Positions 8,397 to 43,455 of a stretch of DNA of 64,000 nt are shown piece by piece. This DNA comes from Haloarchaeobius salinus (GTDB lineage Archaea; Halobacteriota; Halobacteria; Halobacteriales; Natrialbaceae), in contig NZ_JANHAU010000002.1 in assembly GCF_024464185.1 (NCBI RefSeq), positions 372,001-436,000 of the forward strand. Reading direction: 5' to 3'. A program made the translations under genes and the position numbers. Under the pieces are notes generated by a model. It saw only the letters and a program-made list of their open reading frames with translations. It was not told the origin of the DNA and did no database searches. How positions within the stretch are numbered: position 1 is the stretch's first letter; every line of letters begins with the position of its first letter.

Positions 8397-8470
8397 TCCG
8401 CCCTCCCCGATTTGAACGGGGGACAAGTCGATCTACAGTCGACTGCTCTACCAGTCTGAGCTAAGGGCGG
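8397..8470 (-). tRNA. tRNA-Tyr (anticodon GUA)
   Basis: The minus strand folds into a full 74-nt cloverleaf: acceptor CCGCCCT with AGGGCGG, D stem GCTC/GAGC, anticodon stem GTCGA/TCGAC around loop CTGTAGA (anticodon GTA), T stem CCCCG/CGGGG around TTCAAAT, discriminator A. The first pair is C1-G72, the identity element of archaeal tRNA-Tyr. The CCA end is not encoded; a T-rich CTTCTTT follows directly and may terminate transcription. No intron is present. Confidence 0.95.
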
Positions 8471-21987: not shown

Positions 21988-22824
21988 TCAGACGTCGTCC
22001 CGGAGCTCCCGGACCTTGTCGACGTTCCAGGCGAAGCTCCGGCCGTCCTCGGTCGGGGTCTCCAGCACGAGCGGCACGTCGCGAACCTGCTCGTGGTTGA
22101 CGAACGCGCGCATGCCGTCGTCGCCGATGTAGCCGTCGCCGATGTGGGCGTGTTCGTCCTTGTTGGTGCCGCACTCGTGCTTGGAGTCGTTGAGGTGGAC
22201 GCAGGCCAGTTTCTCCGCGCCGACGACGTCGTCGAACTCGGCCATCGTCTCCGCGACGGCCTCGGGCGTGGAGAGGTCGTAGCCCGCGGCGAACATGTGC
22301 GCGGTGTCGAGACACACCTCGAGGTCGTGGTCGGACTGCTCGAGGACGCTCGTGAGGTGCTCGAACTGGCCGCCGAGCTTGGTGCCCGAGCCGGCGTCGG
22401 ACTCGACGAGCACGGTGACGCCGTCGGGGACGTCGAGTTCGTCGAGCGCGCTCGCGGCGTTCGCGATGCCGCCCTCGACGCCCGCGCCGGTGTGCGCGCC
22501 GAGGTGGACGTTCACGTAGTCGATGTCCAGTTCGGCGGCGGCGTCGACCTCCTGCTGCATGGAGTCGATGGACTTCTCGCGCAGGCCGTCCTTGGGCGTA
22601 CAGAGGTTCACGAGGTAGGAGGCGTGGATGACCCACGGCCCCGCCAGCGACTCAGCGGTTCCCTCGCGGAAGGCTGTGGCCTCGTCGTCCTCGATGCTGC
22701 CGTGGTCCCACACCTGCGGGGAGTGGGTGAAGATCTGTCCGCAGTTGCCGCCGATCTCGAGCTGGTTCTCGACCGCGTTGTCGACACCGCCCGCGATGGA
22801 GACGTGTGCGCCTACCTTGACCAT
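21988..22824 (-). CDS. nfo: Endonuclease IV (AP endonuclease)
   Basis: A 278-residue TIM-barrel DNA repair enzyme. It cleaves abasic sites 5' to the lesion. Zinc ligand regions are visible: [57 protein letters not shown] (E), [41 protein letters not shown] and [11 protein letters not shown] at the end. The full set of Nfo motifs is present. It begins at ATG 22824, with no partner gene in the same orientation close by. Confidence 0.95.
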
Positions 22825-22910: not shown

Positions 22911-23131
22911 GTCAGAAAGCCCCCGTCAGCTCGCCGCCTGCGACTCGCTGTGGTCCTCGTCCCTGCGGTCCTTGCGTCGTCTCGGCTGGCGAGCTGACGG
23001 CCCCTTTCAGCCCCACCCGACCGCAACCGCACCTCACGCCTCCCCAGCCGATTGCGATGCTCGCTGCGCTGCGCTTCTCATCCCTCGCGCGAGCTTAGAC
23101 GAGACGCGCTCGCTTCGCTCGCGCAGTCTCG
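22911..23131. repeat. Dispersed structured repeat, copy 1
   Basis: The 389-base gap 22825-23213 holds no gene but one copy of a repeat also found at 42011. Order on the plus strand: CAGAAAGCCCC, a stem arm CCGTCAGCTCGCC (22923-22935), a core with CTCGTCCCTGCGGTCCTTG, the complementary arm GGCGAGCTGACGG (22988-23000), CCCCTTTCAG, then CCGCAACCGCACCTCACGCC and on to CGATTGCGATGCTCGCTG. It closes near TTCTCATCCCTCGCGCG. A further hairpin follows, CGAGAC 23100-23105 with GTCTCG 23126-23131. Confidence 0.75.
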
Positions 23132-23213
23132 CCAGTCCGCGCGCCACCCGGCTGGTCAGTCGTCGCTGCAGGCGAAAGTTCCCAATATCCGGCTGCCCCC
23201 GTCCGAAAACGGT

Positions 23214-24029
23214 CTACCGCGAGTCGTCCCGGTCGCGCACCCACGCGTCGGCGGCGTACTTCGACTCGGCCAGCTCCGCGGCGGCGTCGAGTTCGCCCTC
23301 GGTCCAGGCTCCCTCGTCCGCGGCCGCCCAGTCCGCAAGCGAGTCCTCCAGCGCGGCGACGAACGTCTCGCGGTCGACGTCGGCCTGCTGGCGGACACCG
23401 GTGACGCGCTCGCGGAACTGTTCGGGGGTCACGTCGTGGTCGGCGAACACGCCGAGGTGGCGGTCGGGCGCGAGGTCGAAGGAGATGGAGCCGTGCTGGA
23501 TGACGGCGTCTCGCTGGCGGTACTGGGCGTTACCGGAGAGCTTCCGGGGCTCGTCGTCGCCGTAGGCGAGCACGTCGTGGGCGGGGTGGATGCCCCGGAG
23601 GTAGCAGGCGGGCTGGTGGATGCGGGGGTACTCCTCGTCGGCGAAGTCGGCGTCCACGCCCACGGACCGGATGGCGTCGAGGACGGGTTCACAGAGCAGT
23701 TCGTAGCAGTCCATGAGCGAGCCCGGCAGCTCGTCGGCGGGCGCGATGATGCTGTAGGAGACGTCGGCGTGGCTGTCGTGGTAGATGCCGCCGCCGCCGG
23801 TCTGCCGGCGCGTCACGTCGATGCCCTCGCGCTCGCAGAACGCCCAGTCGACGCTCTCTTCGGCCTGCTGGTAGCCCATCGAGAGGCAGCTGGGCTCCCA
23901 CCGGTAGACGCGGAGCGTGCGGACGCCGTCGGTCGTGGCCGACGCTGCCGCGACCTCGTCCAGCGCCATGTTCGTCGGGCCGTCGCGTGACTCCTCGCGT
24001 ATCAGTCGCCACTCCCTGTCCGCAAGCAT
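23214..24029 (-). CDS. lplA: Lipoate-protein ligase family protein
   Basis: A 271-residue BPL/LplA-fold enzyme that attaches lipoate (or octanoate) to lipoyl domains of 2-oxoacid dehydrogenases or GcvH. Visible are GPTNMALDEVAAA, VTRRQTGGGGIYHD (the lipoyl-AMP loop RRxTGGG), SVGVDADF, and the catalytic-type lysine in RKLSGNAQYRQRDAVIQHGSISFD. These are all standard LplA features. ATG 24029 is the first start before the conserved EWRLIREESRDGPTNM block. Confidence 0.88.
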   Translation of the reverse strand: MLADREWRLIREESRDGPTNMALDEVAAASATTDGVRTLRVYRWEPSCLSMGYQQAEESVDWAFCEREGIDVTRRQTGGGGIYHDSHADVSYSIIAPADELPGSLMDCYELLCEPVLDAIRSVGVDADFADEEYPRIHQPACYLRGIHPAHDVLAYGDDEPRKLSGNAQYRQRDAVIQHGSISFDLAPDRHLGVFADHDVTPEQFRERVTGVRQQADVDRETFVAALEDSLADWAAADEGAWTEGELDAAAELAESKYAADAWVRDRDDSR

Positions 24030-40496: not shown

Positions 40497-41873
40497 TTAC
40501 TCGTCGTCCGCTTCCTGCACCCACACCGTCTTCCGGTTGACGAACTCGCGGATGCCGTCGGCGGCCAGCTCGCGACCGTAGCCCGAGATGCCGACGCCAC
40601 CGAACGGCAGGCGCGGGTCGGACTTCACCATCTCGTTGACGAACGTCGCGCCCGCGTCGATCTCGTGGGCGACGCGCTCGCCGCGGTCCAGGTCGTCGGT
40701 CCACACCGACGCCCCGAGCCCGTACGGCGAATCGTTCGCGAGTTCGACGGCCTCGGCCTCGCTCTCGACGCGGAACACCGCCGCGACCGGCCCGAACGTC
40801 TCTTCGCAGGCGACGGCCATGTCGGGGTCGAGGTCGGCCAGCACCGTCGGCGGGTAGTAGTAGCCGTCGCGGTCCATCGGCTCGCCGCCGAGCAGGCAGT
40901 CCGCGCCGGCGTCGACGCTGCGCTCGACCTGGTCGTGCAGGTCCTGCATCAGGTCCTCGCGGGCCTGCGGACCGACCTCCGTCTCGTCGTCCATCGGGTC
41001 GCCGACGGTCCAGGCGTCCAGCTCAGCGACGAACTGCTCGACGAACTCGTCGTAGACCTCGTCGTGGACGATGAACCGCTTCGCCGCGATGCAGGACTGC
41101 CCGCTGTTCTGGAGCCGGGCCAGCGCCGCCGTCTCGACGGCCGCATCGACGTTCGCGTCGTCGAGCACGACGAACGGGTCGGAGCCGCCGAGTTCGAGGA
41201 CGGTCTTCTTCAGCTCCTCGCCCGCCGTCTTCGCGACCTGCTTGCCCGCGAACTCGCTCCCGGTCAGCGTCACCGCCCGGACCCGGTCGTCGCGGATGAC
41301 CTCGTTCGCCTCCGAGCCGCCGACGAGCAGCGTCTGGAACGCCCCCTCGGGGAAGCCCGCCTCCCGGAACACCTCCTCGATGGCCAGCGCGCACTTCGGC
41401 ACGTTCGACGCGTGCTTGAGGAGGCCGACGTTGCCCGCCGCCAGGCTCGGTGCGGCGAACCGGAACACCTGCCAGAACGGGAAGTTCCAGGGCATCACGG
41501 CCAGCACCGGCCCGATGGGTTCGTGGCGCACGTACGTCTTCGCGTGGCTCGCCCCGCCGATGACCTCGTCCTGCAGATATTCGGGGGCCTTCTCCGCGTA
41601 GTGCTCGCAGACCCAGGCGCACTTGCGGACCTCGCCTCTCGCCTGCGAGATGGGCTTGCCCATCTCCACCGTCATCAGCTCCGCGTAGTGCTCCTCGTTC
41701 TCGCGAAGCACGTCGGCGGCCTCCTCCAGCAGCTGTCGCCGCTCGTTCATCGGCACCTCGCGCCAGGACTCGTAGGTGTCCGCCGCCGTGGCGAGGCGCT
41801 CCTCGACCGCCGCGTCGTCGTGCTCCTCGACCGTCTCGACGTGCTCACCGGTCGCTGGGTTGATGCGCTCCAT
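40497..41873 (-). CDS. NAD(P)-dependent aldehyde dehydrogenase (succinate-semialdehyde type)
   Basis: A 458-residue ALDH. Catalytic Cys is in NSGQSCIAAKRF, the general-base Glu in LELGGSDPFVV, and Asn in MPWNFPFWQ is the cofactor/oxyanion motif. C-terminal ETFGPVAAVFRV and PFGGVGISGYGREL complete the fold. The sequence type fits succinate-semialdehyde dehydrogenase (GabD/Sad class) without an adjacent GABA aminotransferase, so the substrate is unsure. Confidence 0.88.
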   Translation of the reverse strand: MERINPATGEHVETVEEHDDAAVEERLATAADTYESWREVPMNERRQLLEEAADVLRENEEHYAELMTVEMGKPISQARGEVRKCAWVCEHYAEKAPEYLQDEVIGGASHAKTYVRHEPIGPVLAVMPWNFPFWQVFRFAAPSLAAGNVGLLKHASNVPKCALAIEEVFREAGFPEGAFQTLLVGGSEANEVIRDDRVRAVTLTGSEFAGKQVAKTAGEELKKTVLELGGSDPFVVLDDANVDAAVETAALARLQNSGQSCIAAKRFIVHDEVYDEFVEQFVAELDAWTVGDPMDDETEVGPQAREDLMQDLHDQVERSVDAGADCLLGGEPMDRDGYYYPPTVLADLDPDMAVACEETFGPVAAVFRVESEAEAVELANDSPYGLGASVWTDDLDRGERVAHEIDAGATFVNEMVKSDPRLPFGGVGISGYGRELAADGIREFVNRKTVWVQEADDE

Positions 41874-42010: not shown

Positions 42011-42430
42011 CAGCCAGAAAGCCCCGAGCGTCTCGACTCCCGCGGCTCGTTGTGCTCCTCGTTCCTGCGGTGCTTGGCTGGCGAGACTCCTCCGTCGTCT
42101 CGCTGCTTCCCGCTCGGTCGCAGGCTCCCTCGCGGGAACGTCGCCGGGGTTCGTCGAGACGCTCGCCCCTTTCAGTCCCACCGTCGGACCTGCGGACCGA
42201 CGAGCCCCCGTTCGCTCGCAAGCTCGCTCACGGGGACACCCCACCGCAACCGCACCGCACCTCACGCCTCCCCAACCGATTGCGATGCTCGCTGGCGCTG
42301 TCGCCCGAAAATCGGAGATTTTCGGGATGTGGCCAGAAATCTACGATTTCTGGCTGCCTGCCGGACGTAGTCCGGCACTGACGAGAGAGCAAGCTCTCTC
42401 GAACCACGCTTCTCATCCCTCGCGCGGAAT
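42011..42430. repeat. Dispersed structured repeat, copy 2 (with hairpin insertion)
   Basis: The 631-base gap 41874-42504 has no gene but carries a longer version of the repeat at 22911. Shared parts, in order: CCAGAAAGCCCC, stem arm CGAGCGTCTCGAC (42025-42037), core with CTCGTTCCTGCGGTGCTTG, complementary arm GTCGAGACGCTCG (42153-42165), CCCCTTTCAG, CACCTCACGCCTCCCCAACC and CGATTGCGATGCTCGCTGG, ending in TTCTCATCCCTCGCGCG. Stem sequences differ completely from copy 1 but each is perfectly self-complementary. The core between the arms is about 60 bases longer than in copy 1. Confidence 0.75.
42304..42400. repeat. Four short-loop perfect hairpins inserted in the repeat
   Basis: CCCGAAAATC 42304-42313 with 42317-42326, CCAGAAATC 42333-42341 with 42345-42353, GCCGGAC 42360-42366 with 42370-42376, and GAGAGAGC 42383-42390 with 42393-42400; loops are 3, 3, 3 and 2 bases. 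Copy 1 lacks this whole block, so it looks inserted between GCGCTG and CGCTTCTCATC. Confidence 0.75.
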
Positions 42431-42504
42431 GGCTCGCGGCCTTCGGCACGCTCGCCAGCGCGCGCCGGTGGTGGAAAATCGGCAGAAGTGGTACGTCCTC
42501 GGGT

Positions 42505-43455
42505 TCACTCCACCGTCGGCAGGTCGACTTCCTCCCCGTCGGCGTAGACGGTGGGGTCGCGGATGATGCCGTCCTGGTGGAGGGGTGCGCTGGTGTCGCC
42601 GCCGATGCCGGCGTCGTCGCCGAAGGCGATGTGGACGGTGCCGCCGGCCTTCTCGTCGAGCAGGACGCTCCCGACGAGTTCGGTGACGGCGACGTTGGTG
42701 CCGATGCCGAGTTCGGCGAGGTTGTAGGCGTCCTGGCCTACTTCCTCGGCGGCAGTCTCGAGCATCGCGTCGATCTCCTCGGAGTCGGTGGCGGTGACGT
42801 AGCCGTCCTCGACCTCGATGGTCACCGTCTCGCCCGCCTCGAGCAGGCCGTGGGGGTCGATGGTGCCGTCGACGACGTAGGTGCCGTTCGCGGTCTCGGG
42901 GGAGACGAACACCTCGCCGGCGGGGAGGTTGGAGAACTCGCCGGGCTCGTGGACCATGCCGGTGTCCGAGCGCCAGTCGCGGTCGCCCGGCTCGAACGTG
43001 ATGTCGGTGCCCAGTTCGGTGGTGACGCGGATCTCGTCGGCGTCTGCGACCTGTTCGAGCATCGACTCGCACTCGGCGGCGATGTTCGCGTAGTCGGCGT
43101 CCAGCCCGGTCAGGAACACCTCCTCGGTGATGCCGGGGAGGGTCGCGCCGCGCGCGCCGGCCTCGCAGGCGTCGCCGCGGGCGCGGGTGTGGCTGATGCT
43201 CTTCGTCGTCGGTGCGAGGAACACGTCGCTGGCCGCCATCGCGGCGGCGACGGGTTCGGGCGGTTCCTCGCCGTGCTGGTTCCCCGGCGGGTAGCGGAGC
43301 AGGGTGGCGTCGTCCGTTATCTCGCTCGCGACCTCGTACAATGCCTCGCCGATGGGGCGGCGCTTGTCGTCGGTGACGACGGCGCAGGACTCGTCGCTGG
43401 CGAGGTTCAGACACTGGCGGATTGCGGTTTCGGCGGGTTCGCGGAGGTCGGTCAT
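42505..43455 (-). CDS. M29-like aminopeptidase (third, divergent copy)
   Basis: A 316-residue protein related to the M29 pair at 17.5-20 kb but shorter. Ligand motifs are kept: NLPAGEVFVSPE, AELGIGTN, GGTVHIAFGDD and SAPLHQDGIIRD. The N-terminal half differs (ESCAVVTDDKRRPIGEALY), as in leucyl aminopeptidase-like haloarchaeal members. Cytoplasmic. The gene follows the repeat copy 2, with its stop about 75 bases after the repeat end. Confidence 0.85.
   Translation of the reverse strand: MTDLREPAETAIRQCLNLASDESCAVVTDDKRRPIGEALYEVASEITDDATLLRYPPGNQHGEEPPEPVAAAMAASDVFLAPTTKSISHTRARGDACEAGARGATLPGITEEVFLTGLDADYANIAAECESMLEQVADADEIRVTTELGTDITFEPGDRDWRSDTGMVHEPGEFSNLPAGEVFVSPETANGTYVVDGTIDPHGLLEAGETVTIEVEDGYVTATDSEEIDAMLETAAEEVGQDAYNLAELGIGTNVAVTELVGSVLLDEKAGGTVHIAFGDDAGIGGDTSAPLHQDGIIRDPTVYADGEEVDLPTVE

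What the first reader, a model, noticed from the sequence alone, without database searches (positions are those of the whole stretch)
22911..23131. Repeat copy 1: stem sequences co-vary with copy 2
Copies at 22911 and 42011 share flanks (AGAAAGCCCC, CCCCTTTCAG, ACCTCACGCCTCCCC, CGATTGCGATGCTCGCTG) but their 13-bp stems (CCGTCAGCTCGCC versus CGAGCGTCTCGAC) have unrelated sequence while each remains perfectly self-complementary. That is a textbook sign of structure under selection. A core of about 50 bases in copy 1 is partly conserved (CTCGTCCCTGCGGTCCTTG). This may be an RNA element, a non-autonomous mobile element, or a protein binding platform.
Basis: partly seen in the sequence, partly recalled or inferred. 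Interest (0 to 1): 0.66.

Follow-up and report, generated by a model that had tools for sequence, protein, structure and literature searches.

The report
Covarying hairpin repeat of haloarchaeal genomes
The window carries two copies of a short hairpin-forming repeat that is scattered between genes throughout the salt-loving archaea (found in 167 of 194 genomes checked), whose paired arms keep changing together, so the folded shape rather than the letters is what is being preserved, for a purpose still to be found.

Summary
Copy 1 (22914-23017) and copy 2 (42016-42182) share invariant flanks but have unrelated, perfectly complementary arms. They belong to a family with about 40 dispersed loci in this genome, found in 167/194 Halobacteria genomes and in no sampled genome of the phylum outside the class. 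It matches no Rfam family. Across 101 hairpins, 21 of 26 pairs show compensatory changes (covariation score 0.578 against 0.146 +/- 0.007 shuffled, 0/500). Non-Watson-Crick pairs are asymmetric (A.C 74, G.T 18 on the strand as read), pointing to the complementary strand as the folded single strand. Unpaired loop positions show no such bias. At orthologous sites in a congener, 42 of 46 changed stem pairs are compensated, several by whole-arm replacement. In other lineages the hairpin sits inside elements with 14-bp terminal inverted repeats and 8-bp target duplications, like an IS6/IS240-type insertion sequence. So this is a non-autonomous, MITE-like family whose core hairpin is maintained as a structured single strand, more likely RNA than ssDNA. 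The window genome's copies lack those terminal repeats, sit at sites shared with congeners, and carry two-hairpin insert modules; the module tested (M1) occurs only inside copies. Transcription and function are untested.

The parts
22914..23017 (-). Copy 1, domain D1: about 104-nt hairpin; the structured single strand inferred here is the complement (5'-GGTGGGGCTGAAAGGGGC..stem..GGGGCTTTC-3')
22924..22935 (+). Copy 1, 5' arm CGTCAGCTCGCC
   Evidence: pairs 12/12 with 22988-22999
22988..22999 (+). Copy 1, 3' arm GGCGAGCTGACG
23000..23017 (+). Copy 1, invariant tail GCCCCTTTCAGCCCCACC
   Evidence: the tail GCCCCTTTCAGTCCCACC recurs class-wide
23018..23092 (.). Copy 1, domain D2 (CACCTCACGCCTCCCCAGCCGATTGCGATGCTCGCTG..CATCCCTCGCGCG)
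   Evidence: shared by 30 of 35 own-genome D1 copies
23093..23155 (.). Copy 1, domain D3: third hairpin with variable stem (CGAGAC 23100-23105 / GTCTCG 23126-23131) and the conserved CCGCGCGCCACCCGGCTGG
   Evidence: stems differ among copies (GTGCTGCG/CGCAGCAC, CGTGTGCTG/CAGCACACG, GGCGAGAC/GTCTCGCC)
42016..42182 (-). Copy 2, domain D1, with a two-hairpin insert in its loop
42079..42139 (.). Copy 2, insert module of two hairpins (GGCGAGACTCCTCCGTCGTCTCGC / CCCGCTCGG..CTCGCGGG), boundaries approximate
   Evidence: also present in the orthologous copy in G002
42183..42240 (.). Copy 2, insert module M4 (GTCGGACC..GGGGACAC+C), 58 bp, absent at the orthologous site in G002
42241..42426 (.). Copy 2, domain D2, interrupted by the insert below
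42301..42406 (.). Copy 2, insert of four consecutive perfect hairpins (M1-type ends TCG..CGAACCA), absent in G002
42430..42457 (.). Copy 2, domain D3 hairpin TGGCTCGCGGCC..GGCACGCTCGCCA
21991..22824 (-). Flanking gene: AP_endonuc_2 (xylose-isomerase-like TIM barrel)
23217..24029 (-). Flanking gene: lipoate-protein ligase A/B family
40500..41873 (-). Flanking gene of copy 2: aldehyde dehydrogenase
42508..43455 (-). Flanking gene of copy 2: M29-type metallopeptidase-like protein

Best explanation
The finding is a member of a haloarchaea-wide family of short, non-autonomous, MITE-like dispersed repeats found almost only between genes, whose core (D1) is a hairpin of about 100-125 nt. SHOWN: the flanks and apical-loop sequences are nearly invariant while the arms covary; the family is class-wide; in several lineages it is bounded by terminal inverted repeats with 8-bp target duplications, like an IS6/IS240-type insertion sequence; in the window's genus the copies are old (orthologous sites) and rearrange internally. 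INFERRED: the hairpin is kept because a single strand, the one reading 5'-GGTGGGACTGAAAGGGGC..., folds and works in that form, most likely as RNA carried in transcripts that run through the element, where a protein would recognise the fold plus the invariant flanks/loops and not the arm sequence. Arms are free to drift by compensatory change and are also swapped as whole cassettes between copies. The two-hairpin inserts lie in D1 loop or bulge positions, or outside D1, and so leave the stem intact. What the RNA does (protecting or processing transcripts, insulating the next promoter, or helping the element spread) is not established.
For: Covariation: 21 of 26 pairs doubly changed, 94.7% of cells paired, score 0.578 against 0.146 +/- 0.007 in shuffles (0/500) and at most 0.085 when slid by 1-3 columns. 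Wobble asymmetry: A.C 74 against G.T 18 in 168 unique stems (p 1.6e-9, not corrected for relatedness), spread over some 60 loci, same direction in an added set, 18:7, p 0.02; unpaired loop positions show no G>A over C>T bias (8.5% v 7.0%, 4.0% v 5.8%). Distribution: 167/194 class genomes, 58/66 genera, none of the sampled genomes outside the class, on 36 plasmid records. Mobility: 20 TIR-bounded elements, 6 with at least 7/8 matching 8-mers at both ends (null 0.25%); a 697-bp IS with DDE_Tnp_IS240 transposase and TIR GGTCGTGTTTAGTT in genome G062, which also carries a D1 element ending in the complementary CTAAACACGACC (L286). In-situ change: 42 of 46 changed stem pairs compensated at orthologous sites. 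Clean insertion/loss of modules at an orthologous site. Orientation: single copies codirectional with tandem genes 44:25, p 0.03; 5'-facing gene on the GGGGCTTTC side 88:57, p 0.012. No Rfam match, even at E 1 for copy 1.
Against: No expression data could be consulted, so transcription is not shown. The wobble asymmetry is strong in the class-wide set but not resolvable in the window's own genome (3 G.T, 2 A.C), and the added set was picked with a model built on that strand. The GAAAG/CTTTC closing helix is invariant and gives no covariation support. Orientation biases are modest and rest on a simple codon-usage gene caller of my own. No TIR and no IS240-type transposase were found in the window genome, so the mobility evidence comes from other genera. 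Whole-cassette replacement between paralogues weakens the inference of selection from any single pair of copies.
Confidence: 0.55

Rival explanations
1. Single-stranded DNA hairpin for a HUH-type (Y1, IS200/IS605 or RAYT-like) transposase: the fold is kept because ssDNA of one strand is the recognition substrate, as in REPINs or PATEs.
For: Single-strand asymmetry is equally expected for ssDNA. Two-hairpin modules come and go without target duplication. Tail-to-tail pairs with 17-30-nt, nearly palindromic spacers are common (84 copies), reminiscent of REPINs. Hairpin-less remnants such as GAAAGCCCCCGGCCCCTTTC exist.
Against: The TIR-bounded copies carry 8-bp duplications, as DDE transposases make, not HUH enzymes. 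The genome has one Y1 transposase gene, about 1 kb from a TnpB-like gene in the same contig. Its IS605-type ends do not look like the element. Copies in a genome are diverged and at sites shared with congeners, unlike recently spread REPINs.
Confidence: 0.2
2. No function: palindromes are kept perfect by a mutational process (replication template switching between arms, plus ectopic gene conversion of whole hairpin cassettes between copies).
For: Interior of D1 is inverted in one copy (L055), hairpins are lost, fused or replaced at orthologous sites, and some new arms match arms present at other loci (GACGTGCTCGTC, GAGTCGCTGGAG). The short module hairpins are perfect (72 of 88) with no wobble asymmetry.
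Against: Template switching does not predict a 4:1 excess of A.C over G.T on one strand when loops show no strand bias. It does not explain near-invariant flanks and loops across a whole class, nor the orientation bias relative to genes.
Confidence: 0.2
3. Cis-acting RNA feature recruited by the host, for example a processing, termination or insulating element upstream of promoters.
For: The GGGGCUUUC end faces the 5' end of the neighbouring gene in 88 of 145 single copies, about 100 nt from its start. Copies are vertically kept at orthologous sites.
Against: No conserved neighbour gene type was seen at the two window copies. Presence is patchy (1 to at least 19 copies, absent from 27 of 194 genomes). 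No poly-T run follows the hairpin on either strand.
Confidence: 0.15
4. CRISPR-repeat-derived or G-quadruplex element, suggested by GTGGGACTGAAAG and by the four G tracts.
For: Resemblance of GTGGGACTGAAAG to type I-B repeat 3' ends (from memory); G tracts are nearly invariant.
Against: All 21 genomic GTGGGAYTGAAR sites are in element copies, none in an array; no G-quadruplex in the minimum free energy structure of any of 220 hairpins with the quadruplex model on.
Confidence: 0.02

Closest known systems
MITEs of IS6/IS240-type haloarchaeal insertion sequences
   Same: Short, non-coding; in several lineages bounded by TIR (GGTAGTGTTCAGATAAG-like) and 8-bp TSD, with an IS240-type IS of matching TIR in one of the genomes
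   Different: The core is a conserved covarying hairpin unrelated to the IS; copies in the window's genus lack the TIR; class-wide and old
PATEs and SMR-A small mobile repeats of Haloquadratum walsbyi (PMC3119063)
   Same: Transposase-free, about 110 bp, prominent inverted repeats, no target duplication, sometimes nested in other elements, tens of copies
   Different: SMR types are described as more than 95% identical within a type and as inserting in IS605/PATE palindromes; here each copy has its own arms with fixed flanks. Sequences of the Haloquadratum families could not be compared
REP/REPIN (BIME) elements with RAYT transposases
   Same: Palindromic units between genes, also as inverted pairs with a short spacer
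   Different: Hairpin of about 100 nt, not 20-40; no RAYT-like partner found; arms free to vary while loops and flanks are fixed
Rfam structured RNA families
   Same: Covariation of the kind used to define such families
   Different: No Rfam 15 family matches; dispersed multicopy rather than one locus

Membership tests
MITE (IS6/IS240-type) | Terminal inverted repeats shared with an autonomous IS | tested here: met
   About 20 class elements with GGTAGTGTTCAGAT-type TIR; IS240-type IS L306 (697 bp) has GGTCGTGTTTAGTT, and a D1 element of the same genome ends in the complementary CTAAACACGACC
MITE (IS6/IS240-type) | 8-bp target site duplication | tested here: met
   3 of 20 perfect and 6 of 20 at least 7/8, null 0.25%
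MITE (IS6/IS240-type) | TIR/TSD on the window copies themselves | tested here: not met
   No TIR-like sequence in own-genome loci or the window; no PF13610 hit in G000
Structured RNA family | Compensatory covariation beyond controls | tested here: met
Structured RNA family | Single-strand (G.U v A.C) asymmetry | tested here: met
   control; not resolvable within the window genome alone
Structured RNA family | Transcription | not testable with these tools
   No RNA data available
PATE / SMR-A (Haloquadratum) | Sequence relation to the described families, insertion in IS605-type palindromes | tested here: inconclusive
REPIN | Cognate RAYT (stand-alone Y1) transposase | tested here: inconclusive
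   One Y1_Tnp gene in the genome, about 1 kb from a TnpB-like gene; RAYT subfamily not examined
Rfam families | Match above or below gathering score | tested here: not met

The most novel reading that the evidence does not exclude
A previously unrecognised, class-wide structured RNA of Halobacteria, spread as the core of MITE-like elements and then retained by the host, in which any self-complementary arms serve as long as the invariant flanks and loop motif are presented, with internal hairpin modules acting like expansion segments.
Probability: 0.35. Interest if true: 0.82.

Novelty: new variant of a known kind. Interest (0 to 1): 0.62.

Why it matters
Non-autonomous palindromic repeats are usually treated as dead baggage. 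Here is a family in most haloarchaeal genera in which the fold of one strand is held constant while the letters of the arms turn over, even between orthologous sites of sister species. That gives a natural, replicated experiment for a long-standing question: are genomic palindromes kept by selection on RNA or ssDNA structure, or by mutational correction? Related copies exist in cultured named species (for example Haloarcula marismortui pNG600), so it can be tested directly. It also gives an unlisted RNA-like family that could be added to annotation libraries.

Tried and rejected
CRISPR-repeat origin (all GTGGGAYTGAAR sites lie in the element). G-quadruplex at the base (0 of 220). Known RNA family (no Rfam match). 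Virus-borne element (0 exact tail matches in IMG/VR). IS605/TnpB ends as the source (no matching ends in the genome's own TnpB/TnpA loci). Insert module M1 as a free mobile element (strong matches all inside known copies; the one other place, C1:347709, lies next to D2-D3-like sequence). Mutational strand bias as the cause of wobble asymmetry (loops unbiased). Wobble asymmetry in module and D3 hairpins: none (4 G.T, 5 A.C). Literature searches found only the Haloquadratum MITE/PATE/SMR description as a near relative; searches for the flank sequences in papers gave unrelated papers.

Full report
WHAT WAS CLAIMED AND WHAT IS THERE. Copy 1 and copy 2 read exactly as described: invariant AGAAAGCCCC and GCCCCTTTCAG(T/C)CCCACC flanks around arms that are unrelated in sequence but complementary within each copy. 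A search of the window's genome with copy 1 gave 52 matching pieces at roughly 40 places, dispersed over the contigs.

ANATOMY. Oriented as in the window, the own-genus element is: D1, GAAAG-CCCC-arm-(inner helix, conserved loop)-arm'-GCCCCTTTCAGTCCCACC, about 104 nt; D2, a linker with CACCTCACGCCTCCCCAGCC...CATCCCTCGCGCG; D3, a further hairpin whose stem also differs among copies; CCGCGCGCCACCCGGCTGG; and in some copies an AT-rich palindrome GTTTACAATATTTGTAAAC. At fixed positions many copies carry inserts of about 50-60 nt made of two adjacent, nearly always perfect hairpins. Copy 2 has three inserts: in the D1 loop, after D1, and a four-hairpin one in D2. The M1 module's strong matches in the genome all lie inside element copies.

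THE STEMS REALLY COVARY. In 232 anchored copies, 162 pair at 11-12 of the first 12 positions against 1.1% when arms are swapped between copies; among the 199 well-paired copies there are 152 different 12-nt arms. On an alignment of 101 hairpins from many genera, RNAalifold gives 26 pairs, 21 with compensatory double changes. The given structure scores 0.578 against 0.146 +/- 0.007 in 500 shuffles and at most 0.085 when slid. The outer GAAAG/CTTTC helix is invariant and therefore neutral evidence.

WHICH STRAND. If a single strand is selected, G-U is tolerated and A-C is not. Read on the window's strand, unique stems have 74 A.C and 18 G.T (p 1.6e-9 ignoring relatedness), from some 60 loci; an additional set of 73 stems gives 18 and 7 (p 0.02; that set was chosen with a model of this strand, a mild bias). 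Unpaired loop columns show no excess of G>A over C>T, so strand-biased mutation is not the cause. The folded strand is thus the complement, 5'-GGTGGGACTGAAAGGGGC... The window's own genome alone is too small a sample (3 v 2).

DISTRIBUTION. A covariance model hits 167 of 194 Halobacteria genomes, 58 of 66 genera, with 1 to at least 19 copies (19 is the scoring cap). In a phylum-wide sample of 197, all 25 genomes with hits belong to the window's order. An exact 18-nt tail search returned only haloarchaeal records, and none in viral contigs. 36 plasmid records carry copies, including Haloarcula marismortui pNG600. No Rfam family matches.

MOBILITY. In other genera 84 copies stand in tail-to-tail inverted pairs with spacers mostly 25-30 nt and nearly palindromic. 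About 20 elements are bounded by GGTAGTGTTCAGAT-type inverted repeats; the 8-mers outside match at 7 or 8 positions in 6 of 20 (3 perfect) against 0.25% by chance. An IS with a DDE_Tnp_IS240 domain in genome G062 is 697 bp long with the TIR GGTCGTGTTTAGTT, and a D1 element of the same genome ends in the complementary CTAAACACGACC (L286). So in those lineages the element is a MITE. The window genome shows neither TIRs nor such a transposase.

EVOLUTION IN PLACE. About 20 own-genome copies have counterparts at the same site in congener G002 (flanks mostly 85-97% identical). Copy 2's site holds the element in G002, without M4 and the four-hairpin insert but with a different two-hairpin insert; truncated forms are in G004 and G005. 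Copy 1's site has remnants in G002 and G004, and nothing in G005. Among comparable orthologous hairpins, 46 stem pairs differ and 42 of them are changed on both sides with pairing kept. Several are complete replacements by arms found elsewhere in the genome, so cassette exchange contributes. One copy has its interior inverted, and others have lost or swapped the hairpin.

CONTEXT. 270 of 280 copies lie outside called genes. Single copies sit codirectionally with tandem genes 44:25 (p 0.03), and a gene start faces the GGGGCTTTC end in 88 of 145 (p 0.012), while the other side shows no bias. These are modest effects from a home-made gene caller. Both window copies lie between two genes on the minus strand, codirectional with the inferred strand.

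MECHANISM, WITH STATUS. Shown: covarying hairpin, near-invariant flanks and loop, class-wide spread, MITE features in some lineages, internal turnover at old sites. Inferred: selection on a folded single strand; RNA preferred over ssDNA because of the orientation relative to genes and the DDE-type target duplications. Unknown: the binding partner and the benefit. The main rivals are an ssDNA substrate for a HUH transposase, and purely mutational upkeep of palindromes by template switching and gene conversion. The strand asymmetry argues against the second, and both remain open.

COMPARISON. It works like a MITE with an RNA-like core. It is a MITE by tested criteria only in some other lineages. 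It resembles the SMR-A and PATE repeats of Haloquadratum, which could not be compared by sequence. REPIN membership is not supported by a known partner gene.

VERDICT. Confirmed observation; interpretation partly right. A new variant of a known kind (non-autonomous palindromic repeat) with an unusually clear signature of structure selection and no described function.

Noticed in passing
own genome, e.g. G000:C1:8798, C2:49964; copy 1 degenerate near 23180: An AT-rich palindrome GTTTACNNNNNNNGTAAAC occurs 14 times in the genome (control 0); about 8 of these lie just downstream of element copies. It may be a regulator or recombinase site, or a further part of the element.
   Followed up: partly
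window 42301-42406: Four perfect short hairpins in a row (CCCGAAAATC/GATTTTCGGG, CCAGAAATC/GATTTCTGG, TGCCGGAC/GTCCGGCA, CGAGAGAGC/GCTCTCTCG-type) inside copy 2; modules of this kind are swapped in order between copies (L050 v L066).
   Followed up: partly
L055 (G000:C2:45921-46982): The interior of D1 is inverted between its arms while the outer flanks keep orientation.
   Followed up: no
L041, L044, L036, L066 upstream of D1: Tandem partial duplication (about 45 nt) of the CGAACAGCCAGAAAGCCCC...GTGGGAC segment just upstream of D1.
   Followed up: no
L306, L309 (G062): Two 697-bp IS240/IS6-type insertion sequences about 5.7 kb apart with GGTCGTGTTTAGTT / GGTAGTGTTTAGTC termini.
   Followed up: partly
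window 8397-8470: tRNA gene on the minus strand, the only Rfam match in the window.
   Followed up: no
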